A DNA stretch of 46,688 nucleotides from contig JAFWHT010000034.1 in NCBI GenBank assembly GCA_017511965.1, positions 1 to 46,688 of the forward strand. Reading direction: 5' to 3'. Below, piece after piece: positions 6,284 through 42,731 of the stretch. The translations under genes and the position numbers were made by a program. Below the pieces are notes generated by a model. It made no database searches, was not told where the DNA came from, and saw only the letters and a list, made by a program, of their open reading frames with translations. Each line of letters starts with the position of its first letter. The first letter of the stretch is position 1. The stretch is from Candidatus Saccharimonadota bacterium (GTDB lineage Bacteria; Patescibacteriota; Saccharimonadia; Saccharimonadales; Saccharimonadaceae).

Positions 6284-6291
6284 TTATATAT

Positions 6292-6297
6292 ATTTTA
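6292..6297 (-). promoter_or_regulatory. -10 box of histidine kinase cluster
   Basis: TAAAAT on the minus strand, 8 bases before the kinase ATG; leader of at most a few bases. It lies between two divergent genes. Confidence 0.5.
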
Positions 6298-6319
6298 ACA
6301 CAAACATTTTAAAATGTGG

Positions 6320-6325
6320 TATTAT
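6320..6325 (+). promoter_or_regulatory. -10 box of baseplate J-like gene (leaderless type)
   Basis: TATTAT ends 6 bases before the ATG at 6332. This spacing decides the start against the in-frame ATG at 6314, which would lie upstream of the promoter box. Confidence 0.6.
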
Positions 6326-6331
6326 TTTTAT

Positions 6332-8011
6332 ATGGACAAAGATGTGGTTTATATTGAACCTGAAAATGATATTACGGATATCATTGCCAAAATTGAAGGT
6401 TCAAAGCAAAAAATCATTGCGTTAGTACCGCCAAAGAAAGCGGGGGTATTTAGAAGCGTAGTGAATATAAAATTAATTACTAAGGCGGGAGTTTCGTCTG
6501 GGAAAAAAGTTGTATTAGTAACAACGGACCCTTCGATTATGAAACTTGCGGCGACAACTAGATTGCCAGTGGCAAAAGATTTGAATTCGGCGCCAGAGAT
6601 TTTGAAGCCAGAGACGGAAAGTGAAGAAGCAAAAGAAGAAGAAGCTAGCGACGAGGTAGCCGAAAAAGAGACAGAGACGGAAGCCGAGCCGGAAGCCGAA
6701 AGTGAAGATGAAGATAAAGACGAAGCTGAAAATGAAGACGAGAGCGAGGATGATAATAAGGGCAAAAAATCAAAAGAAAAGCCCAAAAAAGAACGTAAGG
6801 AATCGAAAAATAAATTGGTAAATTGGGTTTTGGCGCACAAGAAAATCTCGATTTTTAGTGGCGTGGGATTTTTGGCGTTGATTTTGTTGTTGGTTTGGGC
6901 ATTTGTTTTGGCGCCGGCCGTAACGATAATAGTAGGAATTCGGACGGTTTCGAATAATTTTTCGGAAAATGTAAGTTTTACATCCAATTTAACTGAAGAA
7001 AAAGTCGAAGAAGGGCGTTTTTATTACGAAGAAAAGAAAATTGAGACGATAAATGAAGTTGGATTTGAGGCGACAGGGCAGAAAAACGTTGGAAAAAAAG
7101 CCGAAGGCTCGATTCTTGTTTCGACTTATTTTGAATATAATAAAGCAGGTTCAATTGTCTTAAAAGACGGCGAGGCCTTTAGTATTCGTGGTCTAACATA
7201 TTACTCGGCAGAGTCGGTTGGGCTAGCTTACAACGGGAGAGGAAAAGAGGACTGCGACAATAAAGATGATGCGGCATCGCTTATTAATTATGGTTGCCAA
7301 GTATCGGCGAAGGTTAAAGTTGTGGCGGCGGAGCCTGGTTCGCAATATAATATCCCTGCTTCTGATACGGGTTGGGATACGACGGCAAATGTTGGAGTTA
7401 GATCCAAAGATCCGATGACGGGTGGTAGTGATGAAATGAAAACGATTGTTGCGGAGGCAGATGTTGAAAAAGCAAAAGGAGAAATCACAGCCGATAATGA
7501 AGCAGAAATGAAAAAGAAACTTTATGAGACGATCGATACAGAAACGTCGCTAATTATTGATAGTAGTTTGACGGTTTCGACGGCAGAGGCGATTTCGACG
7601 CCGGCAGTCGGTGAAGAAGTCGGCGAAGGAGTTAAGCCGGTATTAAAGGCGATAACGACAGCGTCGGTTTATGTGGTTGATAAAACGAAAGTTGAAGAGT
7701 TTATTGCGAAAAAAGCAAATCTTGGCGAAGGAATGAAAATTTATAAGATGGATAATCCGTTTGTTGAGAACTTTTCGAAAACCGACGAAGGGGTGATTGG
7801 TAAACTAAAGACAGCTTATTCGACTGGTCCGAAAGTAACGGAAAACGACGTGGTGGAAATCACAAAAGGCAAAGGTTTTGGTGTAGCGCAACACGATCTT
7901 AGAGATATCGACGGAGTAATTGACGTGCGAATTGATAAGTCATATCCTTGGGTGACATCGGTGCCTGGCAACGCAAATAAAATTACTGTAGTTTTGGAAG
8001 TTAAGGAATAA
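6332..8011 (+). CDS. Membrane-anchored protein with baseplate J-like domain
   Basis: About 559 aa. Residues 1-80 form a compact domain (YIEPENDITDIIAKIEGSKQ), followed by ~85 residues of acidic Glu/Asp/Ser repeats and a Lys-rich stretch, then one transmembrane helix (ISIFSGVGFLALILLLVWAF). The outside part contains a segment resembling the baseplate J family: KKAEGSILV, then FSIRGLTYYS, AKVKVVAAEPGSQYNIPA and TGGSDE. Proteins of this build are widespread in CPR genomes but their role is not established. The layout implies a cytoplasmic head, charged linker, helix and external domain. The next gene starts 2 bases after the stop, so the two are probably cotranscribed. Confidence 0.6.
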   Translation: MDKDVVYIEPENDITDIIAKIEGSKQKIIALVPPKKAGVFRSVVNIKLITKAGVSSGKKVVLVTTDPSIMKLAATTRLPVAKDLNSAPEILKPETESEEAKEEEASDEVAEKETETEAEPEAESEDEDKDEAENEDESEDDNKGKKSKEKPKKERKESKNKLVNWVLAHKKISIFSGVGFLALILLLVWAFVLAPAVTIIVGIRTVSNNFSENVSFTSNLTEEKVEEGRFYYEEKKIETINEVGFEATGQKNVGKKAEGSILVSTYFEYNKAGSIVLKDGEAFSIRGLTYYSAESVGLAYNGRGKEDCDNKDDAASLINYGCQVSAKVKVVAAEPGSQYNIPASDTGWDTTANVGVRSKDPMTGGSDEMKTIVAEADVEKAKGEITADNEAEMKKKLYETIDTETSLIIDSSLTVSTAEAISTPAVGEEVGEGVKPVLKAITTASVYVVDKTKVEEFIAKKANLGEGMKIYKMDNPFVENFSKTDEGVIGKLKTAYSTGPKVTENDVVEITKGKGFGVAQHDLRDIDGVIDVRIDKSYPWVTSVPGNANKITVVLEVKE

Positions 8012-8013
8012 AA

Positions 8014-9353
8014 GTGCGAGTTTTAGGGTTAGATGTTGGAGAAAAACGAATCGGTGTTGCGAAAATCGATTCGGATACAAAAATTGCAGTGCCAATTGGG
8101 TTTATTTTGGTAGACGGAAATGAGTGGCAGGAAATTGCTAATCAGGCACGGTTTAATAATACAAATCTATTTGTTTTGGGTTTACCACGTAGTAACGAAG
8201 GAAATGAAACGGCACAATCGGTTTATGTGCGAAACTTCGCAAAAACCTTAATGGAGAAAGTGCCTGGGGCAAAAATTAGGTTTCAGGACGAATCATTAAC
8301 ATCAGTAACGGCAGAAGAAAGATTAAAAGCACGAGGAAAACCATACGAAAAGGGTGAGATTGATGCAGAAGCTGCAGTGATTATATTGGAAGATTTTATA
8401 GAGAGCTTTAATGAACCAAATAGTAAAATAAATGAAGAAATTAATATAATTGAGAAAGAAGCCAAAAAAATGAAGAGGAAAGCTAAAAGAATTACGACGT
8501 GGATTTCGGGGGGAGCGATTTTGGTGATTTTGGCGCTTCTTGCGGTGGGTGGTTATTTGTGGATTAAAGATTTGCGAGCAAAAGAACGGGCAAAACATTA
8601 TGCAGAATTAGAATCTCAGATGGTGGCGGAGGTATTTGATTTTACGATTCGCCCGGGAGAGACGATTTTTGAGATAAAAAAAAATTTAATTGAAGCGGGA
8701 TATACGGCGGAAGAGGTTGAGGAAGCCTTTGCTTTTAAATATGATTTTGATTTTTTGAAGTCACGGCCGGCAGGGGCTGGTTTGGAAGGATATTTATTTG
8801 GTGATACGCATGAGTTTTATAAAAGCGCTAGTGTTCAGGAAATTTTGGAGGTATTTTTAGGGGAAATGGGGCGAGTGATTGAAGAAAACAACTTGGTGGC
8901 GCGATATTCAGAACGAGGGCTTTCGCTGTTTGAAGGAATAACTTTGGCTTCAATTGTGCAAAAAGAAGCGCCATCGCCAGCATTTGACGCCGAGCAACCA
9001 ATGGTAGCACAGGTATTTTTGTCGCGATTAAATCTTGGATGGAAATTAGGTAGCGATGTAACAGTTTCGTATGCTTTAGATGTTTTAAACCCAGAACGAG
9101 ATAAAGAACATGGCGATAATGCTGGGGCATTATTGGTTGATTCTTGTTATAATACACGACTTTATGTAGGGTTGCCTTGTGGACCGATATCAAATCCGGG
9201 GCTTTCGGCGCTTATGGCGGTGGCCGAGCCGGCAGACACTTCGTATCTGTTTTTCTTGACAGGTGACGACGGAACGATGTATTATAGTAATACAGAAGCT
9301 GAGCATAATCAGAACGCGACCAACCATTGTCAAAGCTTTTGTAGTATATCATT

Positions 9354-9357: not shown

Positions 9358-11908
<2,551 letters not shown>

Positions 11909-29826: not shown

Positions 29827-32373
29827 ATGTTAGAAATTCGAGGTGTGAGCAAAGTCTACAAGACTGCGGGGGTTGATCGGAAAGTCTTGAATAATGTGCG
29901 AGTGAATTTTAGAACTTCGGAATTTGTTGCGATACTAGGGCCGTCGGGTTCGGGTAAGACGACACTTTTAAATATCGTTGGTGGATTAGATAAATATACA
30001 AACGGCGATTTGGTTATTAACGAAAAATCGACGAAAAAATTTCACGATAAAGATTGGGATTCATATCGCAATCACCGCATCGGGTTTGTGTTTCAGAATT
30101 ATAATTTAATTCCGCATCAAACGGTGCTCGCTAACGTGCGGCTGGCTTTGACTTTGTCGGGGATTTCTAAACGTGAAGCAAACCGACGGGCGAAGAAAGT
30201 CTTAAAAGATGTTGGACTTTCTGAACATATAAATAAATTGCCATCGCAACTTTCGGGTGGGCAAGCCCAACGTGTGGCGATTGCGAGGGCGCTCATAAAT
30301 GATCCGGATATTCTGCTTGCAGACGAGCCGACGGGGGCATTGGATTCAGAAACTAGCAAGCAAATTATGAAATTACTGAAAAAAGTTTCCGAGAAAAAGT
30401 TAGTAGTGATGGTAACACATAACCCGGAACTAGCACGGGAATTTGCGACGCGAACGATTAAAATTAAAGACGGGAAGGTAACGCATGATTCGAAAGTTTA
30501 TGATGGGAAAATTAAAACCGATTTAGATTTAATTGAAGCGGAGAAAAAATCAAAAAAGACGCGGATGTCGTTTTTTACGGCGTTTTCGTTGTCGCTCAAG
30601 AATCTTTTGACGAAAAAAGCGCGAACAATTTTAGTTGCGGTGGCGGGTTCGATTGGGATTATTGGAATTGCACTAATTAGCGCAGTTTCGACTGGGTTTC
30701 AGAATTATATTGATACGATTGAGCGAGATACTTTGACTTCGTATCCGCTAACTTTGATGCAAGAGTCGACAGACGTGACTGGTCTATTATTATCAATGAC
30801 TGGAGAGAGTAAAAATTCGGAAACAGTCGAAAACGGAGTGCGCGAAAATCAAGTAATTACTTCGATGCTTGGAAATGTTACGACGAATGATTTAAAGAGT
30901 TTTCGTGAGTATGTGGATGAAAATTATGCGGAAGTGCGCGATGATTTGAGGTTAGTTGAGAATCGGTATAGCGTGGACCCGTTAATATATACGGTTGATG
31001 CGACGGGCGACGTGGCAAAAGTAAATCCGAGTTCGCTATTTACGTCGCTGGTTGGTGATGCGTCGATTTTGTCGTCGTATTCGGGTTTTACGTCGGTTTA
31101 TACACAATCGCCGTTAGAGTTGTTGGAAAAAGATTTTGATGTGGTGGCGGGGAGATTTCCAAAAGAATATAATGAGATGGTGATTTTCTTAAGTAATCCA
31201 CATGAGATTCCAGATCTTTTGACTTATTCTTTAGGTTTTCATAATACAAAAGAGCTTTCAAATGCAGTAAAGGGGCTGATGAGTGGAGAAAAAATTAAAC
31301 TTGGGAATAAGCCACTTGAAATTAGCTATGATGAACTGATGAATATAGATTTAAGATTAGTTTTGCCAGCGGATATTTATAAATATAATGCCAAATATGA
31401 TGTTTATGCAGACATGAGTGGCAACTCTGAATTTATGGAGAAAATATATAACGAAGCAGAAAAATTAAAGATTGTAGGAGTTATTACTGGCAAGCCCGGC
31501 TCAGTGTTTTCGATGGAAAGTGGAGTCGCATATTTGCCATCACTGCCGGTGCATATAATCGAAAGAGCGCGCGAATCAGAAATCGTTAAAAAACAACTTG
31601 CCGAGCCGACAGTTGATATATTTACAAATCGAAAGTTTGGCGAAAAATGGAATGTGAGCGATTTCGAAATTGATATTCAAGATTTGATGACAATGAGTAG
31701 TGATGAGATTATGCGAGTAGTAGAGACCGTAACGAGCCAAAAAGACACGACACTGTTTTCGAATTTGGTGGCGATGGGATACCAAGAACTAGATAAGCCA
31801 ACGATACTGGCACTTTATTTTAATTCCTTTGATGGCAAGACGCATTTCATTGACTTTTTGGAAAACTACAATAATGCTAGAAGGGAAGCAGGGGCTGAAG
31901 CGGAAGTGATTGAATACAATGACGCAACAGGAATTTTGATGTCGTCGGTTAAAACGATTGTGGATGCGGTAAGTTATGTTTTGATTGCGTTTGTTTCGAT
32001 TTCGCTGATTGTTTCGTCGATTATGATTGGTGTGATTACTTATATCTCGGTGTATGAGAGGACAAAGGAGATTGGGATTTTGCGGGCGATTGGCGCGAGC
32101 AAACGAAATATATCGTCGATATTTAATGCAGAAACCTTTATTATCGGGCTTTTGTCGGGATTAATTGGCGTTGGAGTTTCGTATGCGCTAATTCCGGTTA
32201 TCAATATGATTCTTCGGCACTTTACGGGAGATATTCCACTTTCAGCGATGCTTGATATTAGGACGGCAGGATTTTTAATTATACTTAGCTTTGTCTTGAC
32301 GGTTGTTGCGGGATTGATCCCGGCACGTTCGGCGAGTAAAAAAGATCCGGTTGAAGCACTAAGAACCGAATAA
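29827..32373 (+). CDS. MacB/LolCDE-type ABC transporter, fused ATPase and permease
   Basis: An 848-aa protein joining an ABC ATPase and a MacB-type permease, working as a mechanotransmitter or exporter of peptides, toxins or lipoproteins. ATPase (~1-230): Walker A GPSGSGKT, signature LSGGQAQRVAIARA, Walker B ILLADEPT, switch VTHNPE. A linker leads to the first helix (~260-285, TILVAVAGSIGIIGIALISA), then a large external domain (~290-690) and three helices at ~700-840 with the FtsX-fold motif RTKEIGILRAIGASKRN. The fused order is that of MacB, but the external domain is longer. No outer-membrane or periplasmic partner is nearby, as expected for a single-membrane cell. Confidence 0.9.
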   Translation: MLEIRGVSKVYKTAGVDRKVLNNVRVNFRTSEFVAILGPSGSGKTTLLNIVGGLDKYTNGDLVINEKSTKKFHDKDWDSYRNHRIGFVFQNYNLIPHQTVLANVRLALTLSGISKREANRRAKKVLKDVGLSEHINKLPSQLSGGQAQRVAIARALINDPDILLADEPTGALDSETSKQIMKLLKKVSEKKLVVMVTHNPELAREFATRTIKIKDGKVTHDSKVYDGKIKTDLDLIEAEKKSKKTRMSFFTAFSLSLKNLLTKKARTILVAVAGSIGIIGIALISAVSTGFQNYIDTIERDTLTSYPLTLMQESTDVTGLLLSMTGESKNSETVENGVRENQVITSMLGNVTTNDLKSFREYVDENYAEVRDDLRLVENRYSVDPLIYTVDATGDVAKVNPSSLFTSLVGDASILSSYSGFTSVYTQSPLELLEKDFDVVAGRFPKEYNEMVIFLSNPHEIPDLLTYSLGFHNTKELSNAVKGLMSGEKIKLGNKPLEISYDELMNIDLRLVLPADIYKYNAKYDVYADMSGNSEFMEKIYNEAEKLKIVGVITGKPGSVFSMESGVAYLPSLPVHIIERARESEIVKKQLAEPTVDIFTNRKFGEKWNVSDFEIDIQDLMTMSSDEIMRVVETVTSQKDTTLFSNLVAMGYQELDKPTILALYFNSFDGKTHFIDFLENYNNARREAGAEAEVIEYNDATGILMSSVKTIVDAVSYVLIAFVSISLIVSSIMIGVITYISVYERTKEIGILRAIGASKRNISSIFNAETFIIGLLSGLIGVGVSYALIPVINMILRHFTGDIPLSAMLDIRTAGFLIILSFVLTVVAGLIPARSASKKDPVEALRTE

Positions 32374-34026
32374 TATGATATAATTAAAATGCGTTGGGGA
32401 TTCGCCAAGTGGTAAGGCACTGGGTTCTGGTCCCAGCATTCGGGGGTTCGAATCCCTCATCCCCAGCCATATAGAACGACCAGGACACAAAAAGAGCCCC
32501 TCAAAGGGCTCTTTTAGGGTATAATGGACGTTTTCGCCGTCAAATTGGAGGTTCGAGAGTAGCAAACTCAAAATCTGGCGTTTTTCATTCACTTTCGCAA
32601 CCTTGAAGATGTCGGCAGCATGCTCAAAGAGGTTTAGCAGATACGATACAGTTACGTAGTAGCTTTGGTCTACCTCATCTAACTGACGTTGCCTTTTCTC
32701 GATTTCTGCTAGCTCCTCGGCATACCTGATGTTATTCTCGTCATAATCCTCCTGTGTAATACCCAGACCGCCACCAGCCTTGCTATCCATAAACGTATCA
32801 AACAAGGCTCGCTGGCGTTCTTTGATGCGTTGCTTACGGGTCGCCAGTTCGGCACGTCGCTTGTCATAGAATTCGTTTTTCTCGGCGTGCTTGGCCACGA
32901 GCTCCTTTTTTAAGACAGCCATACGCTCTTTTGGTGGGCGTAGCTGCTCAAGCAAGTCAAGCATAATAGCATCAAGCTTAGTCTCGGATATACTGTGCAC
33001 ACAGCCCGTGTGTTGGCCTTTACCGTTGGTGCAGCGATAGTATAGATAGCGGTGTATATTCCCGTTCTTTTGCACCTTCTTTTTTGGGTCGGGCGTCAGT
33101 GTGCATCCGCACTCCGAACAGGTCATCATAGCCCTATATGTGGCCTCTACGCCATAATATCGTTGCCTTTTAGTGCTATGTCCTTCCAAAATATCCTGGA
33201 CTCGGTCAAAAGTTTCTCGGTCAATAAGCGTCTCATAGATATGGGGATACTCTTTTCCAGTTTGCTTGTCGACAATGAGCCCGATATTGAACTTGTTTGT
33301 CAGTATACGGTAAACGTTGTTTTTATGGAAGTTGGTGCCAAACTCCTTGTTCAGCTCTTTTGCGAGCGATTGAACTGAATATGTGCCAGTGGCATAGCGA
33401 CGATAAGCCTCTCGGGCGATATGTGACTTGTGCCCATCGAGAATTACGCTGCGGTCACCGTTGGCTAGTGTTACATTTTTATAGCCATATGGTGCGTTCC
33501 ACGGTAATTGCCCAGCTTTCAGTTTCGCCATTTTGGAATTTTGCCCATCTTCTTTGATACCCTCGAGGTATTGGCGTGCGATAAGAACCTTCATATCCCA
33601 CTGCAAAAGCTCGTTCCTCTTGCTGTCCTTATCTAGCACAAAATGGTCATCAATAAAATGGATACGCTTGCCATTCTTGAGTCGCAAGTCATCAATGATA
33701 ACGGCATCATGAAAGTTGCGAGTGATACGGTCCACACGGAACACAATAATATCTGTTATATCTTTGTGCTTCTTTACGTGTTCAACCATTTCGTGAAACT
33801 TTTTGCGGATTTTATATTGTCCGCCAGTTTCGCTGACGCTAAACACCTCTGCCACTTCAAGGTTATTCTCCTCGGCATATTTTTTGGCCCGAGGGAGCTG
33901 GATTTCGCTGAGAGAAAGCCCCTCCTTTTCTTGTCGTGCCGTTGATACGCGAGCGAAAATAGCTGCTTTACGTTTAGTGCTTTTAGTTTTTTCTGACTGC
34001 TCCGCAGTCAATATAGTTTTACTCAT
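32359..34026 (-). CDS. Large serine recombinase (integrase)
   Basis: A 555-aa integrase that probably inserts and excises the element. The resolvase domain has the nucleophile S28 in FARVSTARQEKEG and the VFRVDRITRNF helix. A recombinase domain (LPWNAPYGYKNV, NFHKNNVYRILTN) and a zinc ribbon (CSECGCTLTP, then YRCTNGKGQHTGC) follow, then a long coiled coil (~400-470). The last ~36 residues (GMRDSNPRMLGPEPSALPLG) are the antisense of the tRNA-Gln and continue to a stop in host DNA at 32359. A leader with TATAAT (34046-34041) and AAGGA precedes the ATG. Confidence 0.93.
   Translation of the reverse strand: MSKTILTAEQSEKTKSTKRKAAIFARVSTARQEKEGLSLSEIQLPRAKKYAEENNLEVAEVFSVSETGGQYKIRKKFHEMVEHVKKHKDITDIIVFRVDRITRNFHDAVIIDDLRLKNGKRIHFIDDHFVLDKDSKRNELLQWDMKVLIARQYLEGIKEDGQNSKMAKLKAGQLPWNAPYGYKNVTLANGDRSVILDGHKSHIAREAYRRYATGTYSVQSLAKELNKEFGTNFHKNNVYRILTNKFNIGLIVDKQTGKEYPHIYETLIDRETFDRVQDILEGHSTKRQRYYGVEATYRAMMTCSECGCTLTPDPKKKVQKNGNIHRYLYYRCTNGKGQHTGCVHSISETKLDAIMLDLLEQLRPPKERMAVLKKELVAKHAEKNEFYDKRRAELATRKQRIKERQRALFDTFMDSKAGGGLGITQEDYDENNIRYAEELAEIEKRQRQLDEVDQSYYVTVSYLLNLFEHAADIFKVAKVNEKRQILSLLLSNLQFDGENVHYTLKEPFEGLFLCPGRSIWLGMRDSNPRMLGPEPSALPLGESPTHFNYIILFGS
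32379..32384 (+). promoter_or_regulatory. -10 box of tRNA-Gln
   Basis: GATATAAT straddling the end of the MacB-like gene, ten bases before the mature tRNA 5' end. Confidence 0.6.
32395..32469 (+). tRNA. tRNA-Gln(CUG)
   Basis: A 75-base cloverleaf. The acceptor stem pairs TGGGGAT (32395-32401) with ATCCCCA (32459-32465). The anticodon arm is CTGGG, loop TTCTGGT, CCCAG, giving anticodon CTG. The T arm has GGTTCGAATCC. The discriminator base is G, as expected for Gln, and CCA is encoded (32467-32469). It is the host site of the element that follows. Confidence 0.96.
32453..32469. other. Candidate attL at the tRNA-Gln 3' end
   Basis: The 17 bases at the tRNA 3' end match 41732-41748 in 15 positions: TCCCTCA, two mismatches, CCCAGCCA. 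The tRNA stays intact after integration. Confidence 0.65.
32490..32516. terminator. Bidirectional terminator after tRNA-Gln, inside the recombinase frame
   Basis: AAAGAGCCC pairs with GGGCTCTTT around a short loop, with T tracts on both strands. On the plus strand it can end the tRNA transcript. On the minus strand it falls inside the recombinase reading frame (encoding EPFEGLFL), ~130 bases before the stop. Confidence 0.7.
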
Positions 34027-34049
34027 GATATTTCCTTATAATTATACTA

Positions 34050-35204
34050 TTATTTAATATAGTTCTCAAGCTTAACTGGCTCAAAATCGTTAATTTGATT
34101 GCGGGCTTCTTTGAAGTAATCGAGCGGAGCGGCTGGCATTTTTAGAGTCTCATATTTATTCTTAATATACCGCCACTCGCTTGAATCGTGTGCCCCAATC
34201 AAGAGCCGTGTGTCCCTTAAGCCTATATTTCTTGATATTTCAATTATGCCCATCACAAGAGCAATGTCTCTAGCCTTAGCTTTTGGGTTAAGAATACGCA
34301 AATGCTCGGCAATGGCTTCAGGCGGCTCTCTGCATCCGATAAATGGCGGAACAGCAGCTTCTAATGCACCAAGTTCGTTTAATATGACCGCTTTTCCTAG
34401 GTCCGCTTTGAATAAATCTTCAAAGTTAGGATTGGTCGGGATTTGGATTTTTAGTTTGGAGAAACGCTGCCGAATGGCATTTTTGGTGCCTAAACGGCTC
34501 TCTAATCTAATAACTTGAAATGGTTGCTTAATATCGGTCTCAATTTTCTTGAGCATATCAAGCTGACACCAGCTGTCTTTTTCGATGTTGCCTTTTTCAG
34601 TTTGCTTTGCAATTTTTAGCTCGGCAATTTTATCATACAAACAAACGCCTTGTTCATTCGTATAAATATGGAGCCCTCTGCCACCATTAAGATAGGTTGT
34701 GGTATTGACGCGTTTTTTAAGCGTAATGTTGGCTTTTGCAGCGTGATTGATAATCATCGCGGGCGTCATGTAGTTGGTTAGTATGATGTTTTTGCCGTAA
34801 TGAATCGTCTTAACTTGGCATTTTTTTAGTTCTTCGTCGGTGATATTGACACCCATGCGGTGCAGGTAATAACTCAAGCCGAAACAAAGCATATCGAAGT
34901 CGTCCTCCTCGATTTCAGTGAAATTATTGTTCCATATAATTTTTGGAGCCGAGAATTCAATATAGAGTAGGTAAAGAAATCCACCTCTCACCGCACGCTT
35001 GTAAAGAGTAAGCCGTGGCATATACCCATCTTTCTTGCTTGGATTTAAGCGACAAGTAATACTTTTGCTTGGACCGAGCTTGTTGTAGGGCGGGGTTAAT
35101 ACCCCGTGCAGGCTTGGCGACCATTTATCAAAAGTCGCCTTGCTGATGATTTTTTGGGTATTTGGGTCTCCGATTGTTACCACCAAAACTACCGTGTCTG
35201 GCAT
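34050..35204 (-). CDS. Replication initiator-like protein (filamentous-phage gpII/CRI type)
   Basis: A 384-aa protein that I place, with reservation, among rolling-circle initiators of the filamentous-phage gpII and plasmid Rep_trans types. The support is the mid-protein pattern TTTYLNGGRGLHIYTN, CLYDKIAELK (the YxK-type segment of those proteins) and FQVIRLESRLG, which resembles their conserved RxE strand, plus its position beside a SpoVG-like gene. The ATG at 35204 has AAAGGAG 6 bases upstream and overlaps the SpoVG-like gene by 77 bases. It would give the element a replicating, plasmid-like state after excision. No HUH motif is evident. Confidence 0.5.
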   Translation of the reverse strand: MPDTVVLVVTIGDPNTQKIISKATFDKWSPSLHGVLTPPYNKLGPSKSITCRLNPSKKDGYMPRLTLYKRAVRGGFLYLLYIEFSAPKIIWNNNFTEIEEDDFDMLCFGLSYYLHRMGVNITDEELKKCQVKTIHYGKNIILTNYMTPAMIINHAAKANITLKKRVNTTTYLNGGRGLHIYTNEQGVCLYDKIAELKIAKQTEKGNIEKDSWCQLDMLKKIETDIKQPFQVIRLESRLGTKNAIRQRFSKLKIQIPTNPNFEDLFKADLGKAVILNELGALEAAVPPFIGCREPPEAIAEHLRILNPKAKARDIALVMGIIEISRNIGLRDTRLLIGAHDSSEWRYIKNKYETLKMPAAPLDYFKEARNQINDFEPVKLENYIK

Positions 35205-35475
35205 TTGTTACTCCTTTCGTTACATTTTGATAATGTTTTATTACTTCTTGCTCGATAGCCGACCCCACATTTCGGTTAAGAGGGTAGAAGATACTAACAG
35301 TTTGGCTACCGACTTTTTTAGTCGGATAGACCAATCGATATCCACCAAACGGACGAGTGATAATTGCAACTGAGGTGCAGCCGATGGCTTCATAAACAAC
35401 AAAGTTGGCGAATGCCACCAGCCCATCTTTAGGGTGGACTGGAATGATTTGCACGTTACTTACTAGCGGCGGCAT
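35128..35475 (-). CDS. SpoVG-family protein
   Basis: A 115-aa protein from the ATG at 35475, which has AAAGGAG at a good distance; the frame is open to 35526. The segment VSNVQIIPVHPKDGLVAFAN, then ITRPFGGYRLVYPTK and YPLNRNVGSAIEQEVIKHY, matches the compact SpoVG fold, a nucleic-acid-binding regulator in Firmicutes that is also common next to plasmid and phage replication genes. A basic, Asn/Gly-rich tail (FGGNNRRPKYPKNHQQG) is disordered-looking. It overlaps both neighbours, so the 58-aa gene, this gene and the initiator-like gene are probably one operon. Confidence 0.75.
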   Translation of the reverse strand: MPPLVSNVQIIPVHPKDGLVAFANFVVYEAIGCTSVAIITRPFGGYRLVYPTKKVGSQTVSIFYPLNRNVGSAIEQEVIKHYQNVTKGVTNARHGSFGGNNRRPKYPKNHQQGDF

Positions 35476-35632
35476 CTTTTCGCTCCTTTCTTTCGTCTTC
35501 TTTAGTTGGTATCGCGACGAGAACATCCTTGCCTTGTCGTCTGTTCACTCCGTCAAGCAATTCAGCCAGCCGAGTTAAGCCGTCAATTTCGGCTTTCTCT
35601 TTCGGGGCTGATGCACTTGATTTTGTGTTCAT
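35456..35632 (-). CDS. Small 58-aa charged protein, unknown function
   Basis: A short frame starting MNTKSSASAPKEKAEI and ending in a Lys/Glu-rich stretch (TKEDERKERKDAAASK). It overlaps the SpoVG-like start by 20 bases in a different frame, on the same strand, as expected for a coupled leading gene. A central segment (LTRLAELLDGVNRRQGKDVL) could form a helix. No family is recognised and I see no convincing ribosome site, so it could also be a non-coding leader. Confidence 0.45.
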   Translation of the reverse strand: MNTKSSASAPKEKAEIDGLTRLAELLDGVNRRQGKDVLVAIPTKEDERKERKDAAASK

Positions 35633-35685
35633 ATGGACATTTTTTCAGGTGCTCGTAATCGCTAGCGTTTACAGAGGTAAACCAT

Positions 35686-35708
35686 CAAAAAAGTGGCTTT
35701 CGCCACCT
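35686..35708 (-). terminator. Terminator of the winged-helix-like gene
   Basis: On the minus strand GTGGC, a GAAA loop and GCCAC are followed by six T. It separates the 35725-36825 gene from the replication operon. Confidence 0.8.
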
Positions 35709-35724
35709 ATTAGTTGGAGCGTGT

Positions 35725-36825
35725 TTAGTTTTTGGGTTTTAAGAGGTGGTGATTGACTGCAATCCCGTCTTCAACAGAGACTAAAGCCTTTTTCTCGCCT
35801 AATCCTAGCATTGAACCTATACGATGATTTAGCCGCCCCATATCATCCCTAAGTCTTTTATTTTCCGCCTTTTTTTGACTGTCGGATAACGAACCGTATA
35901 GCCCATAAGATTCATTTACCGAGTCATAAATCTCCTCGTAAAAAATCGTCTTACTTAAGTCTCGCCTCTCCCCAAATATAACTTTTGCGAGCCTTGCTTC
36001 ATTTTTCGCATCCACGCTAAACGCGTTTGTTAGTTCGCCAAGCTTAAGATATGGCTCGCCGCCGCCAATAAACCGTAAGCCGTTAATATATTTAGGTAGG
36101 ACTTTCTTGCCTCTGTTATCTAAGACCTCGTTAACTTCACTGTCTGATAAGTCCGATATTGCGTTGGATGGTAGCTTATTTAAGGCACTCCGCACAAGTT
36201 TTTTGATGTTGCGTGGCGTATCAGTTAGTAGCCGATAGTAAAGAATTGTCTCATCAGAAACTACGCCATTTTTTTCTACAGTCTCAATGCCCGTAATTGC
36301 AACTCTTAAATCGTCAAGATTATGATAGCTGATAAAATCGGTTTCGACGGGGTCACCGTCTATCACTTCAATCACGGTATCCCCAGCCGAAAACACACTA
36401 TCGTGCACGTCGGATTTGCGAAACGTGACAAGAGTGGCTTTTTTGGAATAGTAAGCCATCCGCTGTCCAGCTCCGTTCACTAGCTCAAGTTCGATGTCGC
36501 CAAGCACCTCGTCATAAGATATTTTGAGTTTTAGATTTTTATATTTACATGGATTTACGTCGGCAAATACCTTACGTGCTTGTTTATCTAATTCGGCCAA
36601 CTCAAAGCCGTCTTGGATGGTAATTTTTTCGCTCCAATCTTCTAGCGGATATATAGGTTCTCTCTTACCTTTTTCGTCCCAATGGTTGCGATACTCCATA
36701 AAATTGAAATGCACATCATCCAAATTGCACTTGGCTGGTATTGGCCATACTGCCGTGAGCGGCTTGCGTTTTCCAAAGTAATTTGCATCTACATGACGCA
36801 ATTTAGAGTTTACATCTTTAACCAT
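35725..36825 (-). CDS. Element-borne protein with possible winged-helix C-terminus
   Basis: A 366-aa soluble protein not recognised as a whole. The N-terminal ~260 residues are mixed alpha/beta with no motif I can name. The last ~110 residues (YLKLGELTNAFSVD, then FYEEIYDSV, RLRDDMGRLNHRIGSML, ending GIAVNHHLL) have the order of helices and final hairpin of OmpR/PhoB-type winged-helix DNA-binding domains. If right, this is the element's regulator. It has its own promoter (TATAAT on the minus strand near 36857), a ~25-base leader with AAGAAG and its own terminator. Confidence 0.5.
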   Translation of the reverse strand: MVKDVNSKLRHVDANYFGKRKPLTAVWPIPAKCNLDDVHFNFMEYRNHWDEKGKREPIYPLEDWSEKITIQDGFELAELDKQARKVFADVNPCKYKNLKLKISYDEVLGDIELELVNGAGQRMAYYSKKATLVTFRKSDVHDSVFSAGDTVIEVIDGDPVETDFISYHNLDDLRVAITGIETVEKNGVVSDETILYYRLLTDTPRNIKKLVRSALNKLPSNAISDLSDSEVNEVLDNRGKKVLPKYINGLRFIGGGEPYLKLGELTNAFSVDAKNEARLAKVIFGERRDLSKTIFYEEIYDSVNESYGLYGSLSDSQKKAENKRLRDDMGRLNHRIGSMLGLGEKKALVSVEDGIAVNHHLLKPKN

Positions 36826-36905
36826 AATTTACTTCTTTATTATTGCAACTATTATACCACACTACCCCAGTAATACCTGCAGTGCGTAATTTAACCACGA
36901 AAAGT

Positions 36906-36935
36906 TTGCATTTTATAAAAACCTTATGTTATAAT
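36906..36935 (+). promoter_or_regulatory. Promoter of the adhesin gene
   Basis: TTGCAT, 18 bases, TATAAT, about 9 bases before the ATG; divergent from the winged-helix-like gene. Coordinates are within a base or two. Confidence 0.6.
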
Positions 36936-36944
36936 TGCTAGTAA

Positions 36945-39900
36945 ATGAGGTCAATAGGACAAAAACTTGGCAAAATCATTCTGTGCGGAATTTTCGCACT
37001 AATCTTTATCATCGGCAACGGAAAATCAGTTTCGGCCCTTGATATCGAACAAAAAGACCTTTCCGTCTCCGCCCACAGCTCCACCCTAACCATCCATAAT
37101 AACGGCATCGGGACCAACGACTTCCAAATCACCCCACAGCTAGAATTCAATAAACTTGGCGACTTCATCACCTACAAACTCATCCTTCATAACAACGATG
37201 GCAAGAGATACAAAATCACAAGCGTCAAAGACGACAACGCTAACGACGCTATCGAGCTTACCTATATCTACCCCACAGACCTAGATACTACCGACAAATC
37301 CCTAGAGCTCACCATTAAATACGTCAAAAAATCCACCACTCCACTCCAGACCGTCACTGCTACTATTAGCCTGGTAGATGAAGACGACGTATCACAGCAA
37401 ATTACCATCGTCGTCCCAAATACTGGCACCAACACCATCACTGACACTCGCTCTGCCACCATCCGTAATACCATCTTTATCTACGCCGCCGTCGCTACCG
37501 CTATCATCACCATATATATAATAGTCCGCCGCAAATACCAAAGAGCCAGAAAATCCACCAAACTCCCTAAAATCCTCGTCACTACCACCCTACTTCTCGG
37601 CCTTATCCCTGTAGCTGTGATTGCCGCTACTGCCAAAGACCTCCAATTTATCATCGAATTTAACAGTATCACGCTTAACGGCCCTTACACTATGACTTTT
37701 GAATCAAACGGTGGCACACCTGTCCCAACTCAAACCGTAGACCACAACACCTACGCTACCAAACCACAAAATCCAACCAAACCAGGCTACACTTTTTCCA
37801 AATGGTTAGATGAAACTAACACCGAGTTTGATTTTACGGCCACCAAAGTCACCAAAGATTACAGCCTCACCGCCACCTACACCCTAGACACTTACCAGCT
37901 AAACCTAGACCTCGCAGGCGGCACCGCAGGCACTCCAGCAAACCCAATCAGCTATACCTACGAAGACAACGACATTACTCTTACCAACCCCACCAAAGAC
38001 CACTACGATTTCGCAGGCTGGATTACCCCAACCGACAACACCCCACATCTCACCGTCACTATCCCCAAAAACTCCACAGGCGACAAATCCTATATTGCCA
38101 CCTGGACGGAAAAATCATACACTGTCACCTTTGACACCAACGGCGGCACCCCCACCCCACAACCTCAAACCATCAAATACCAACAATACGCCACCGAACC
38201 TACTACAAACCCATCCAAAAACGGCTACAACTTCAAAGGCTGGCAGCTAAACAACGCCGACTACGACTTCACTAACACTAAAATCACAGGCGACATCACC
38301 CTCACCGCCAACTACGAAGCCATCAAATACACTATAAACTACAACCTAAACGGCGGCACGGAAGGCACTCCCGCAAACCCCACCGAATACACCATTGAAA
38401 CCCCAGATTTCACCCTAGCAAACCCCACCAAGCCAAACGTCGCCTTCGCAGGCTGGACCACCCCAACAGACAACACTCTCCGAAAAACCGTCACCATCAC
38501 CCAGGGCTCCACTGGCGACAAAACTTTCATCGCCAACTACAAACCAGCCTACACGGTCACTTACGACACCAACGGTGGCGACCCGATTAACCCATCCAGC
38601 TTCCTCGTTGGTGAAAACGACCAAATCGGCACCCTTATTGACGCCACCAAAGACCACTACGATTTCGTTGGCTGGTATATCGGCTCCACCCCGATTGACG
38701 AAACTTACGAAGTCACTGGCGATATCATCATTACCGCTCACTACACTCCACACAAATACACGATTGCTTATAATCTAAACGGCGGCACCGAAACCACCAA
38801 CCCCACCGAATACACCATTGAAACCCCCGATTTCCCTCTCGCCGAGCCTACCCCGCCATCCACCGACAAACGCTTCAAAGGCTGGACCACCCCGACCAAC
38901 AACACCCCGACAAAATCTGTCACTATTTCACAGGGCACCACGGGCGACCTCACCTTTACCGCAGTTTATCAAACCCTCTTTACCGTCACCTTTGACCCAG
39001 GTAGCGAAGGCACAATTCCAGACAGCGATAAAACCAGACAAGTCTGGGAAGATGACCCAATCGGCACTCTGCCAGCCAATCCTAACGTTACAGATCCATT
39101 AAAAATATTCAATTGTTGGGGAGTAAATAATGTTTGTATTGATGCTACTTATACTGTTACTGGCGATACAACAGTAGTTGCCATTTATAAAGATAAAACA
39201 ACAACTACGGTTATTAACGACTTAAACGGTAAAAACGTTACTGATACCTGCACTCAAGCATCATACGTTGCATCTCTTGACTATAACGGCAACAGAAGAT
39301 ATGTCGGCAGATGCCCTAAAAACTACGTTTACTTTAACTGTGACAGAAATAAAGGTAGCCAATTTGATATTTACTCCACTGAAGCCGAAGAAGATGCTGC
39401 TCGTTGTGAATTGTGGCGTATCATCGGCACCTTTGATATATCAAACGGCACTAAAACCGAAAAAAGAACTAAAATAGTCAGAGCAAGTTCTATTGGCAAT
39501 TTCGTGCTTGATAATGATAATTATAGCGGAACTGCTCAATGGGGGAAGAACGCACTGTCTATTAGATTAAATAATACAGGTAGTGGCGGATACCTAAACA
39601 ACGATACAAGTTACGGTCTAAAAAATCCTGCCGCCGAAACTGGTATATTCAAAAGATATTACAAAGCCCAAGATTACATAGAGGATGCTCTTTGGCATAT
39701 TGGTAACCCCACTGGAACTTCTAATGATGTTGGAAAAAGATTTGCCTATACGCTAGGAAATGATATGTATGTTGGACAAAAAACAGTCCCTCTGGACTAT
39801 GTGGATGGCGATACGAACGTTTTAACCTGGAAGGGCAAAGTTGGACTACCAAATATATCGGATTTTATGTTTGCTTCTGATAGGGATGTTACTTATTCTC

Positions 39901-40172
39901 ATTGTGGCAGAACTAATCTGTCGGTATACTCTGGCAACAATTGTGTGGATGCTAGCTGGATGCCATACACTAGATTAATGAGTGTTGTAGGGAATAATGG
40001 TAGTAGTCGTATGCTTAGCACTTGGAATGGAACGTTTAGATATGTCTATAATGGTTCTTTCCCTAACAATGCGGAACCTACCGCTCCAGCAGTTTACCTA
40101 AAAGCCAACGTCACGATAAAAGACGGCGACGGCTCCCTCGCAACCCCATTCATCCTCGGCATCGACGAGTAA
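36945..40172 (+). CDS. Giant surface adhesin with InlB-type B repeats and a C-terminal DUF6273-like domain
   Basis: A 1075-aa surface protein. A signal peptide (~1-27) and a small external domain lead to a helix (~175-193, TIFIYAAVATAIITIYIIV) with a basic stop (RRKYQRARK); a second hydrophobic segment at ~208-230 looks like another signal peptide. Seven B-repeat units of ~70 residues follow (~248-750), each opening YTVTFDTNGG-like and ending in GW or AxY strands, as in Listeria/Bacteroides repeat adhesins. The C-terminal ~330 residues (CELWRIIGTFD, SIRLNN, GLPNISDFMFASD, APAVYLKANVTI) resemble DUF6273. Codons are strongly C-rich up to ~39085, AT-rich from there to ~40095, then C-rich again. 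It probably mediates contact with a host cell. Confidence 0.85.
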   Translation: MRSIGQKLGKIILCGIFALIFIIGNGKSVSALDIEQKDLSVSAHSSTLTIHNNGIGTNDFQITPQLEFNKLGDFITYKLILHNNDGKRYKITSVKDDNANDAIELTYIYPTDLDTTDKSLELTIKYVKKSTTPLQTVTATISLVDEDDVSQQITIVVPNTGTNTITDTRSATIRNTIFIYAAVATAIITIYIIVRRKYQRARKSTKLPKILVTTTLLLGLIPVAVIAATAKDLQFIIEFNSITLNGPYTMTFESNGGTPVPTQTVDHNTYATKPQNPTKPGYTFSKWLDETNTEFDFTATKVTKDYSLTATYTLDTYQLNLDLAGGTAGTPANPISYTYEDNDITLTNPTKDHYDFAGWITPTDNTPHLTVTIPKNSTGDKSYIATWTEKSYTVTFDTNGGTPTPQPQTIKYQQYATEPTTNPSKNGYNFKGWQLNNADYDFTNTKITGDITLTANYEAIKYTINYNLNGGTEGTPANPTEYTIETPDFTLANPTKPNVAFAGWTTPTDNTLRKTVTITQGSTGDKTFIANYKPAYTVTYDTNGGDPINPSSFLVGENDQIGTLIDATKDHYDFVGWYIGSTPIDETYEVTGDIIITAHYTPHKYTIAYNLNGGTETTNPTEYTIETPDFPLAEPTPPSTDKRFKGWTTPTNNTPTKSVTISQGTTGDLTFTAVYQTLFTVTFDPGSEGTIPDSDKTRQVWEDDPIGTLPANPNVTDPLKIFNCWGVNNVCIDATYTVTGDTTVVAIYKDKTTTTVINDLNGKNVTDTCTQASYVASLDYNGNRRYVGRCPKNYVYFNCDRNKGSQFDIYSTEAEEDAARCELWRIIGTFDISNGTKTEKRTKIVRASSIGNFVLDNDNYSGTAQWGKNALSIRLNNTGSGGYLNNDTSYGLKNPAAETGIFKRYYKAQDYIEDALWHIGNPTGTSNDVGKRFAYTLGNDMYVGQKTVPLDYVDGDTNVLTWKGKVGLPNISDFMFASDRDVTYSHCGRTNLSVYSGNNCVDASWMPYTRLMSVVGNNGSSRMLSTWNGTFRYVYNGSFPNNAEPTAPAVYLKANVTIKDGDGSLATPFILGIDE

Positions 40173-40344
40173 CCTCTCCATCTGGCACCCCGAAAATCTA
40201 CCCCTTATTTAATAGTTTTTAGTCCGCTCCGCCGAGCAAGTCATATCTTGACCCCACCTTGTTGACTTGCTGAATAACTTTCACTTGGTCCAACATTAGT
40301 CTCCCCTACCTCTGTAAAATCCCCAACCTTTGCGTAGATTGGCC

Positions 40345-40731
40345 CTAGTAAGCATTGTTGATACTTTGAATCAACCACAGAGCATCATCGTCCGATAACT
40401 CATCAAGCATAGCCCTAGTTGGGTCTGGCTCTACGGCTGGAATTGCGAACGGCACGTTACCTGGCGACTGGTAGCTTTTTGATGGTCGGTTAAGGCGGCG
40501 TCGCCTGTATCGACGGCAACCATGCTTCACACGCCAAGAGGCATACTTCCACTGAAGGTCGGTAGCCTCCACCACTGCCTTATTAAAATCTGGGTAGTCG
40601 CTGAGCCATTTATAGTAGGTGCTACGACCAATACAGGCTAGCTCGCAAACATCCGTGATAGTGCAACCTTCCAGCACCCCATTTACAATTATTTCCCAAG
40701 TTTTCTTGGTTAGCTTCGTTTTTTTACTCAT
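40345..40731 (-). CDS. Small HTH protein, terminase-small-subunit-like
   Basis: A 128-aa basic protein. The N-terminal helix-turn-helix (KLTKKTWEIIVNGVLEG, then ITDVCELACIGRSTYYKWL, YPDFNKAVVEA) is of the kind in phage terminase small subunits and transposase-like regulators. A basic middle (CRRYRRRRLNRPSK) and an acidic C-terminus follow. The ATG at 40731 is chosen because TATAAT ends 6 bases before it; the open frame extends to 40812. With no large terminase in the element, it is more likely a regulator. Confidence 0.65.
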   Translation of the reverse strand: MSKKTKLTKKTWEIIVNGVLEGCTITDVCELACIGRSTYYKWLSDYPDFNKAVVEATDLQWKYASWRVKHGCRRYRRRRLNRPSKSYQSPGNVPFAIPAVEPDPTRAMLDELSDDDALWLIQSINNAY

Positions 40732-40737
40732 ATTTTC

Positions 40738-40743
40738 ATTATA
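40738..40743 (-). promoter_or_regulatory. -10 box of HTH gene (leaderless type)
   Basis: TATAAT on the minus strand, 6 bases before the ATG at 40731. Confidence 0.55.
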
Positions 40744-40908
40744 TCGCTTGGGGTCTCGTAATTTTTTGGGAGTAAATATTAAAAAAGCGATTTGGAAAGT
40801 ATAATAGGTCAAAACCCTACAATGTGTCTATTTTGTCTATTTTCGTTTTGGCAAAAGTCTAACATTTGAAACTTTGTAGTCTGCAAGCATCAACAGGGGT
40901 AGATTACG

Positions 40909-41463
40909 TTAATTTACTTGTGAAATGTTGGCGATAAGAGCGGCGTTTTTCTCGGCTAACTGGCGATAGTAGGCTGGATAGGCTCGCTTAAAAGTCCCTA
41001 CTGACAGGCTAACTTGGATATATCTACTGCCTTTACGTTTGAGATACTCCACGGAGCCGTTGCTGTAATTCACGCAGGGCTCAAATGGGTTATCGTCGGT
41101 CCAGACATTGTTGTAGCGAATTAGAAACCCCTCGTGGACTAGTGGTTTACCTTCTTTTATTAGTTTTTGATGTTTCTGCTTGATTTTCTCGCTCTCTAGC
41201 CGTTTGTGGGCCGTTTGTTGGAGCTTTTCGGCATTTCTGCGATACGTCCTAACTCCGAGCTTTCGGAGGGCTCTAACGCCCTCGTGTTGCCTTTTAACGG
41301 CATTTATGTATTGCTCATCAAAGTCTGGGTAGCGACGCCGCCACCTGAGCAAAGTCATATCTGAAATTCCTATGGCCTGGCAGATGTCTTTGACCGTCCG
41401 CCCATCCTCTACATACATAAGCACTTTCGCACGGATATTGCTGTTATATTTTGAGCTTCTCAT
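40909..41463 (-). CDS. Second small HTH protein, paralogue-like
   Basis: A 184-aa basic protein with the same N-terminal plan as its neighbour: IRAKVLMYVEDG, then VKDICQAIGISDMTLLRWRRRYPDFDEQYINAVKR. The C-terminal half differs and has a small fold with FEPCVNYSNGSVEYLKRKG. The two genes are in tandem on the minus strand with separate -10 boxes, suggesting an old duplication followed by divergence. The role is unknown; DNA binding is inferred from the HTH. Confidence 0.65.
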   Translation of the reverse strand: MRSSKYNSNIRAKVLMYVEDGRTVKDICQAIGISDMTLLRWRRRYPDFDEQYINAVKRQHEGVRALRKLGVRTYRRNAEKLQQTAHKRLESEKIKQKHQKLIKEGKPLVHEGFLIRYNNVWTDDNPFEPCVNYSNGSVEYLKRKGSRYIQVSLSVGTFKRAYPAYYRQLAEKNAALIANISQVN

Positions 41464-41470
41464 ACCTTTG

Positions 41471-41476
41471 ATTTTA
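41471..41476 (-). promoter_or_regulatory. -10 box of second HTH gene
   Basis: TAAAAT on the minus strand, 7 bases before the ATG. Confidence 0.45.
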
Positions 41477-41731
41477 CTATTAGTTTGGGGTGGATTTTTT
41501 TGTAGCTGTCGGTGTTTGATAGGGTGACGATGCCCGATAAAAGTTGGTCCAAAAAAGGGCTCGGTTCAAAGCGACCCATATATGAGGCGGGGGTAGATTA
41601 GTTTGACAACTCTACTTTTTTATTGTATTACACCGCCATTTACATATCCGTAACTCTCCAGTATGGATTTTGAGGTCTCGACACCAAAGCCGTTTAGGTA
41701 TACAATATACTTGGCAGGGTTGAGAATTAAG

Positions 41732-41748
41732 TCCCTCAAGCCCAGCCA
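41732..41748. other. Candidate attR, degenerate copy of tRNA-Gln 3' end
   Basis: TCCCTCA, two mismatches, CCCAGCCA: 15 of 17 positions match the tRNA-Gln 3' end at 32453-32469. It lies 24 bases before the first host-type gene. Confidence 0.6.
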
Positions 41749-41771
41749 CGCAACTTATTTAGGAGATATTA

Positions 41772-42731
41772 ATGGCAAAAAAGAAAATTTTTACAAAAGA
41801 ACAGCTGAAAGAACTTTCAGCGGAAGAAATCATTGATAAATTACAACACGAAAATTATTCTTTACTTGAAACTTTTAATGCGGGTAAGCTTAGGCGTGAA
41901 ATGGTGCCGGTTGGAAAGATTTGTAACACAGCGATTAATTATTTTTTGGGAACGACGGGGCCGAAAGATGACGAGAAGAAACACAATCGAAATGCGCGAC
42001 GAAAATTAGTTAAGGTATTGTCAAAGATAACACCAGGTAGTTATGCTGGGATGCCAAAAAATACTAAAAATGGGCTAGTGGTTGGGTTTAATCATCCATC
42101 GCTTGGTGAAATTGCGCGAATTTTAATGATGAAAATTGATTTGATGGGTGAATCGCCAATGTATTTTCCGGTTAATTTGCCGTGGTATGAAGCCTTAGCG
42201 CCAAATTACGATCGGATTAAGCGGCTTGGTATTATTATTACCCCAACGATTACGCCGGCGACTTGGAAGAAATTAAACCTAAAGGAAGGAACTTATCTTT
42301 TTGAGGCCGGAATGCGACTTAAAAAAGAATTTCGCGATATTTACACTAAGCTATCACACGATGGCTTGCTCGAGGGTGGCGTGATTTTTGTTGCTCCTTC
42401 GGCAACGCGTCAAGCGACTGTTTTTAAAACCAAAGATGTTTATAAAAAGAAAGAAGAAATTATTCCAACGATGTCGATGTTGGCTTTGAAATTATATACT
42501 GATCCAAACATAAAATGTGATTTTTTGCCGATGGCAATTTTACCGCCAAAAAATTATAAACGAGGCTTGAATTTTCATAAGAAATACAAATTGATACCGG
42601 GTAAAATTATGACGGCAGACGAGATTCGTGAAAAATACTTTAAGGTAAAAAACCCAAAGCGACTTGAAGGATTTGACTATGAATTTCATGAAAGAATTGC
42701 ACACGAATTGCCCAATGAGTTTTGGTATTAA
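41772..42731 (+). CDS. Divergent PlsC-like acyltransferase
   Basis: A 319-aa protein without a clear membrane helix. The core resembles glycerophosphate acyltransferases: GLVVGFNHPSLGEIARIL supplies an NHxSxxE block where the family normally has NHxSxxD, and GGVIFVAPSATRQ stands where the FPEGTRS block usually is. The substitution of Asp by Glu and loss of EGTR make activity uncertain; it may be a relative with a changed role in lipid handling. The ATG has TAGGAG upstream. Before integration of the element this gene would have lain directly behind tRNA-Gln. Confidence 0.55.
   Translation: MAKKKIFTKEQLKELSAEEIIDKLQHENYSLLETFNAGKLRREMVPVGKICNTAINYFLGTTGPKDDEKKHNRNARRKLVKVLSKITPGSYAGMPKNTKNGLVVGFNHPSLGEIARILMMKIDLMGESPMYFPVNLPWYEALAPNYDRIKRLGIIITPTITPATWKKLNLKEGTYLFEAGMRLKKEFRDIYTKLSHDGLLEGGVIFVAPSATRQATVFKTKDVYKKKEEIIPTMSMLALKLYTDPNIKCDFLPMAILPPKNYKRGLNFHKKYKLIPGKIMTADEIREKYFKVKNPKRLEGFDYEFHERIAHELPNEFWY

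What the first reader, a model, noticed from the sequence alone, without database searches (positions are those of the whole stretch)
39085..40095. Composition switch inside the adhesin gene
From ~36960 to ~39085 the gene is rich in C on the coding strand with codons such as ACC, AAC and GCC. From ~39085 to ~40095 it becomes AT-rich with ordinary local codons, then the last ~80 bases are C-rich again. The change coincides with the start of the DUF6273-like domain. This suggests that the C-terminal domain was replaced or acquired by recombination between similar ends, as in antigenic or ligand variation.
Basis: seen in the sequence. Interest (0 to 1): 0.6.

Follow-up and report, generated by a model that had tools for sequence, protein, structure and literature searches.

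The report
Mosaic adhesin with swapped binding domain
A surface-protein gene of a small-genome bacterium is a patchwork: about 1,030 bases carrying most of its outermost, probably ligand-binding domain have a different history from the rest and were most likely exchanged by recombination, an ordinary way for bacteria to vary surface proteins, seen here unusually cleanly.

Summary
The switch is real. Using only synonymous NNC/NNT choices, the gene 36945-40172 splits into three blocks: C-rich (C/(C+T) 0.74), C-poor 39066-40094 (0.32), C-rich tail (17/17). The log-likelihood gain is 61; shuffles reach at most 10, and among 190 ORFs of the genome no non-adhesin gene resembles it.

Two details change. 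The left junction (39051-39087) is not at the domain start but about 200 bp upstream, inside a seventh InlB-like repeat; the right junction (40080-40107) is inside the DUF6273-like domain. The middle block has the codon usage of the genome's other adhesins, not of local genes; the C-rich part is the oddity.

Best explanation: homology-assisted replacement of an internal segment (half a repeat plus nearly all of the C-terminal domain) between adhesin genes. Support: junctions within conserved motifs; the closest N-terminal relative carries a different C-terminal domain and no C-rich block; two other adhesins of the genome share a 443-bp, 95% identical 5' part and then nothing; composition mosaicism is enriched in adhesin genes of the genus. 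The gene is cargo of a 9.3-kb integrated element beside tRNA-Gln.

Not supported: silent donor cassettes, ongoing antigenic variation, or a retroelement template for this domain.

The parts
36945..40172 (+). Adhesin-like surface protein gene, 1075 aa: signal/TM-like 8-26, N-terminal region, two TM-like stretches (176-194, 210-228), InlB-type repeats, DUF6273-like C-terminal domain
   Evidence: ORF; Pfam Flg_new E 1.3e-59 with 6 stretches; hydropathy
37686..38966 (+). Six InlB B-type (Flg_new, PF09479) repeats, C-rich
   Evidence: per-repeat matches; C3 0.54
38979..39197 (+). Seventh, divergent InlB-like repeat; chimeric, the composition boundary falls inside it and its second half holds two Cys that no other repeat has
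   Evidence: 37% identity to repeat 38550-38744, E 1e-8; alignment; Cys positions
39051..39087 (+). Left junction, best estimate 39066
   Evidence: change-point profile
39066..40094 (+). Inner segment of different ancestry (C/(C+T) 0.32); contains 8 of the protein's 9 cysteines, the ninth being in the signal peptide
39285..40160 (+). DUF6273-like C-terminal domain, distant relative of DUF6273 and probably C-type-lectin-like
   Evidence: profile A1 match E 1.1e-81; homologs in Bacilli MAGs and congeners; weak fold match to the T. ramosa IgA peptidase structure
40080..40107 (+). Right junction, best estimate 40094, just before the conserved VYLKxNVxIxxGxG..PF.L motif
   Evidence: change-point profile; alignment
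40095..40172 (+). C-rich tail: conserved last 25 residues of the domain; C-richness continues downstream to about 40420
   Evidence: 17/17 NNC; flanking counts
32470..41771 (.). Integrated element that carries the adhesin, between tRNA-Gln and the conserved gene 41772
   Evidence: empty or differently filled slot in congeners
32395..32469 (+). tRNA-Gln (CTG), flank of the insertion slot
32359..34026 (-). Large serine recombinase/integrase; ORF end overlaps the tRNA antisense
   Evidence: Pfam Resolvase and Recombinase; phrog_95 integrase E 7e-65
40345..40812 (-). HTH protein, terminase-small-subunit-like
40909..41463 (-). HTH protein, terminase-small-subunit-like
   Evidence: homologs with a related recombinase at the same slot in G140

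Best explanation
The gene is a recombinant. A C-rich InlB-repeat adhesin that already ended in a DUF6273-like domain had about 1.03 kb replaced by the matching stretch of another adhesin, from the middle of its last repeat to just before the last 25 residues of its C-terminal domain. The conserved repeat on the left and the conserved VYLK..PF.L motif on the right probably served as the similar ends. The result keeps the cell anchor, stalk and last strands and changes the exposed, probably ligand-binding head. Shown: three blocks, their boundaries, their position relative to domains, and module exchange in sister adhesins. Inferred: homologous recombination as mechanism, its direction, ligand binding, any benefit.
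For: Three blocks from synonymous sites only. Tail matches the front and not the middle (Fisher p = 1.7e-7 versus middle; codon models). Junctions lie in the seventh repeat and in the domain's conserved terminal motif; in the model the tail is a confident part of the fold (pLDDT about 85). Eight cysteines in the middle block, none in the flanks outside the signal peptide. Closest N-terminal relative (49%) has InlB repeats plus DUF285 instead and C3 0.13. Adhesins on C10 and C37 share 443 bp at 95% and then nothing. The C29 adhesin is a mirror-image mosaic: an ordinary gene with a C-rich block of two InlB repeats ending at the conserved DGNCWMIENL motif. Across held loci, LLR above 20 in 10 of 68 adhesin-like ORFs versus 0 of 165 others, p = 2.7e-6; length-matched Mann-Whitney p = 1e-11. 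C-rich and ordinary blocks occur in either order in congeners.
Against: No donor or un-recombined parent was found; the nearest relatives of the middle block are only 24-31% identical. No close strains with alternative alleles were available. The tail is short (25 codons). DNA identity at the junctions cannot be measured without the parents, so the crossover mechanism is inferred. Part of the genus-wide enrichment comes from DGR variable regions, which are C-rich for another reason.
Confidence: 0.65

Rival explanations
1. Same mechanism, opposite direction: an ordinary DUF6273-like adhesin received C-rich N-terminal/repeat and tail sequence, so the C-rich parts are the newcomers.
For: The middle has the usual adhesin codon usage of this genome, the C-rich parts are the outliers; the C29 adhesin shows a C-rich block inside an ordinary gene.
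Against: Needs two events, or one event with a retained centre; C-richness extends beyond the gene's 3' end to about 40420, so the C-rich part looks like background.
Confidence: 0.13
2. No exchange: domains of one gene differ in codon usage for intrinsic reasons (translation, amino acid context, strand bias).
For: The protein's regions differ in amino acid make-up; strand-related C/G asymmetry is strong in this genome.
Against: The signal is in synonymous sites and flips back within one domain; the G160 and G161 homologs of the domain are uniform; InlB repeats are C-rich in one part of the C29 gene and ordinary in the rest; polarity differs among congeners; the closest N-terminal relative is not C-rich.
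Confidence: 0.14
3. Assembly chimera of two strains' adhesin genes in the source assembly.
For: The source looks like a fragmented draft genome (39 contigs), and adhesin repeats do break contigs (C10 and C37 end inside adhesins).
Against: Both junctions keep frame, repeat and domain intact, and the domain runs through the right junction. A strain-level chimera would not bring in unrelated codon usage twice within 1 kb.
Confidence: 0.05
4. A diversity-generating retroelement rewrote the region by mutagenic retrohoming.
For: The genome has two DGRs, and a DUF6273-like adhesin of congener G015 contains a DGR variable region. DUF6273 domains are published DGR targets (PMC10743442).
Against: The block is about 1 kb, far longer than the variable regions found here; no template for it in 255 kb of own sequence scanned with an A-specific score (control scored 59/60) or by whole-genome blastn; DGR-made stretches here are C-rich, the opposite of this block.
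Confidence: 0.03

Closest known systems
Porphyromonas gingivalis surface proteins diversified by domain rearrangement and allelic exchange (PMC5266723)
   Same: Intragenic exchange of surface-protein domains, giving mosaics
   Different: There shown by comparing strains; here inferred from one genome's composition and relatives; unrelated proteins
Modular DGR target proteins with C-terminal C-type-lectin domains (PMC8144416), including DUF6273 tentaclins (PMC10743442)
   Same: C-terminal lectin-like variable domain fused to varied stalks; that survey suggests intragenic recombination for target proteins; DUF6273-like domains in this genus are DGR targets in at least one genome
   Different: No template repeat for the window domain; the exchanged piece is far longer than a variable region
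InlB/Flg_new-repeat surface proteins (PF09479)
   Same: Tandem repeats with Pfam matches over the cut-off
   Different: Two internal TM-like stretches and a DUF6273-like head

Membership tests
PF09479 Flg_new / InlB B-repeat proteins | Pfam score over the curated cut-off | tested here: met
   198.6 bits versus 27, six stretches
PF19789 DUF6273 | Pfam score over the curated cut-off (23.5 bits) | tested here: not met
   No hit at E up to 1 for the window protein or its C-terminal part, none in the genome
PF19789 DUF6273 | Profile-level relation to accepted members | tested here: met
   Profile of the domain and its relatives hits DUF6273-like C-termini in 28 of 174 congeners, one of which passes the Pfam cut-off with 25.1 bits; hhalign 92% to another
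PF19789 DUF6273 / C-type-lectin-like fold | Fold match to a solved member | tested here: inconclusive
   Best PDB match is the T. ramosa IgA peptidase (E 0.009-0.015, prob 0.80-0.87), whose N-terminal domain is DUF6273 (PMC12402451); model pLDDT only 52-61
DGR target | Template repeat with A-specific mismatches and a nearby reverse transcriptase | tested here: not met
   No template found; the genome's two DGRs point at other genes
Recombinational mosaic gene | Sharp internal change of ancestry inside one frame | tested here: met
Recombinational mosaic gene | Incongruent phylogeny of blocks or an identified donor | tested here: inconclusive
   Different nearest relatives for the two blocks (G084 for the front, G161 and Bacilli for the middle), but all remote and no trees built
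Cassette-based antigenic variation | Silent donor copies in the same genome | tested here: not met
   Profile and DNA searches of the own genome find one copy only; assembly 97% complete

The most novel reading that the evidence does not exclude
Surface proteins of this lineage are diversified at two scales: whole binding heads are swapped between adhesin genes at fixed seams (InlB repeats on one side, the conserved terminal motif of the lectin-like head on the other), partly carried by elements at a tRNA-Gln hotspot, and within the same head family a retroelement then rewrites the binding surface in some species.
Probability: 0.25. Interest if true: 0.6.

Novelty: new member of a known kind. 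Interest (0 to 1): 0.4.

Why it matters
Bacteria with such small genomes probably live on other cells, so what they bind should depend on adhesin heads like this one. The clean three-block signature gives a tool-only way to find head exchanges in draft genomes without strain series, and adhesin genes in this genus are enriched for it. Together with retroelement-targeted heads of the same family in a congener, it makes partner-range variation in an uncultured group testable.

Tried and rejected
Donor cassette in the own genome: none by DNA, protein or profile. Close relatives in viral contigs for the C-terminal domain, the N-terminal region and the recombinase: none. The C-terminal domain in 394 family genomes: only G161 at 27%. 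Exact repeats flanking the block, such as attachment sites or a flipping cassette: none beyond the InlB repeats themselves. A retroelement variable region as cause of the C-rich tail: in congeners the C-rich retroelement stretch lies upstream of the equivalent of this tail. Simple inversion of the whole gene as the only cause of C-richness: it would explain the C-rich parts (their codon usage resembles lagging-strand genes) but not the middle. A first structure model was poor (pLDDT 52); a trimmed one was only moderate (61, pTM 0.71), so the fold is left open. A search of viral predicted structures gave nothing.

Full report
Observation. The gene 36945-40172 on the plus strand encodes 1075 residues. 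Only synonymous third-position choices between C and T were used to test the claim, so amino acid composition cannot produce the result. The optimal segmentation has three blocks: 36966-39065 with C/(C+T) 0.74 (512 codons), 39066-40094 with 0.32 (223 codons), and 40095-40166 with 17 of 17. The gain over a uniform gene is 61 log units; 60 shuffles reached at most 10. In 190 ORFs of the same genome the next values are 55 (another adhesin) and 16.

What is odd is the C-rich part. Genes on the plus strand of this window have C3 about 0.09 and G3 about 0.29; genes on the minus strand have C3 0.29-0.45 and G3 0.07-0.15, the usual replication-strand asymmetry. The outer blocks (C3 0.54, G3 0.06) look like minus-strand genes although they are read from the plus strand, and even more like a C-rich block in the C29 adhesin. 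The middle block fits the genome's other adhesins best: per-codon score 0.085 against 0.004 for the element, -0.06 lagging, -0.09 leading and -0.27 for the outer part. The outer parts probably have a history on a lagging strand, in this or another genome; that step is inferred.

Anatomy. The protein has a signal-like stretch 8-26, an N-terminal region, TM-like stretches 176-194 and 210-228, six InlB-type repeats 37686-38966, a seventh divergent repeat 38979-39197 (37% identical to the repeat at 38550, E 1e-8), and a C-terminal domain 39285-40160. The left junction lies in the middle of the seventh repeat, so that repeat is a chimera; its second half holds two cysteines that no other repeat has. 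All eight cysteines outside the signal peptide lie in the middle block. The right junction lies just before the motif VYLKANVTIKDGDGSLATPFIL, whose key positions are conserved in all relatives and which is part of the modelled fold.

The C-terminal domain. Direct Pfam search gives no hit. Relatives of 24-31% identity occur as several copies in rabbit-derived Bacilli MAGs and in two congeners. A profile of these reaches C-termini of long surface proteins in 28 of 174 congeners, one of which passes the DUF6273 cut-off. The best, weak, fold match is the T. ramosa IgA peptidase, whose N-terminal domain is annotated DUF6273 (PMC12402451). DUF6273-like domains resemble the C-type lectin fold according to PMC10743442. 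Filing it as a distant DUF6273 relative is supported; formal Pfam membership is not.

Exchange in the family. The best N-terminal relative, G084 (49% identity), carries InlB repeats followed by DUF285 instead, and is not C-rich. In the window's genome two adhesins at contig ends (C10 and C37) share 443 bp at 95% identity and then nothing. The 1853-residue adhesin on C29 is an ordinary gene with a C-rich block covering two repeats and ending at a conserved motif. Over all held loci, strong mosaicism (LLR above 20) occurs in 10 of 68 adhesin-like ORFs and 0 of 165 others; some of these are short retroelement variable regions, others are long blocks in either order. Adhesin-like was defined by Thr/Ser/Asn-rich and charge-poor composition, a proxy.

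Setting. The gene order FtsX-type ABC transporter, tRNA-Gln, gap, gene 41772, phosphorylase is conserved in many congeners; the gap is nearly empty in some (20-200 bp) and up to 10 kb in others, often holding other adhesins. In the window the 9.3-kb gap holds a serine integrase, small HTH proteins resembling terminase small subunits, and the adhesin. A related recombinase with the same kind of HTH gene sits at the same slot in G140 without this adhesin. The adhesin is therefore probably cargo of an integrated element; its exact ends were not determined.

Mechanism. The simplest account is a double crossover or gene conversion replacing 1.03 kb between two adhesins sharing repeats and a terminal motif. 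This is inferred. No donor, no un-recombined parent and no silent copy was found. Retroelement action is unlikely for this block: two retroelements exist in the genome but act on other genes, and no template for this region was found.

Novelty. Intragenic domain exchange in surface proteins is known (for example PMC5266723), and intragenic recombination has been suggested for proteins with C-terminal lectin-like domains (PMC8144416). This is a well-delimited new example. That the lineage is a Saccharibacteria-like member of the candidate phyla radiation is my inference from genome size and gene content; it was not tested.

Noticed in passing
G000:C8, locus L012: template near 5777-5860, variable region near 4665-4750, reverse transcriptase 5938-7176: A diversity-generating retroelement with A-specific template/variable-region mismatches, target ORF C8:33091-34788; dispersed genes on C23 and C28 end in similar sequences and may be further targets.
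   Followed up: partly
G000:C7, locus L013: variable region near 5604-5690, template near 6122-6208, reverse transcriptase about 6282-7180: A second retroelement of the same kind; its reverse transcriptase frame is interrupted (1 TGA, 1 TAA).
   Followed up: partly
L174 (G015:C30), variable region 9451-9520, template 8967-9036, reverse transcriptase 7372-8019: In a congener a retroelement variable region lies inside a DUF6273-like adhesin gene, so this head family is retroelement-diversified in this genus.
   Followed up: partly
G000:C10:9647-11674 and G000:C37:41200-42816: Two adhesins with a 443-bp 95% identical 5' part and unrelated remainder; both contigs end inside the genes.
   Followed up: partly
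G000:C29:60565-66123: An 1853-aa adhesin with four FISUMP-like domains and a C-rich block (codons 154-400) over two InlB repeats; mirror image of the window gene.
   Followed up: partly
window 32395-41772 and loci L098-L117: tRNA-Gln/gene 41772 slot is an insertion hotspot in the genus, often filled with large adhesin genes; the tRNA's orientation relative to gene 41772 differs between genomes.
   Followed up: partly
window 37407-37530 (residues about 155-200): Internal VPNTG followed by a TM-like stretch and a basic patch, resembling a sorting signal but placed before the repeats.
   Followed up: no
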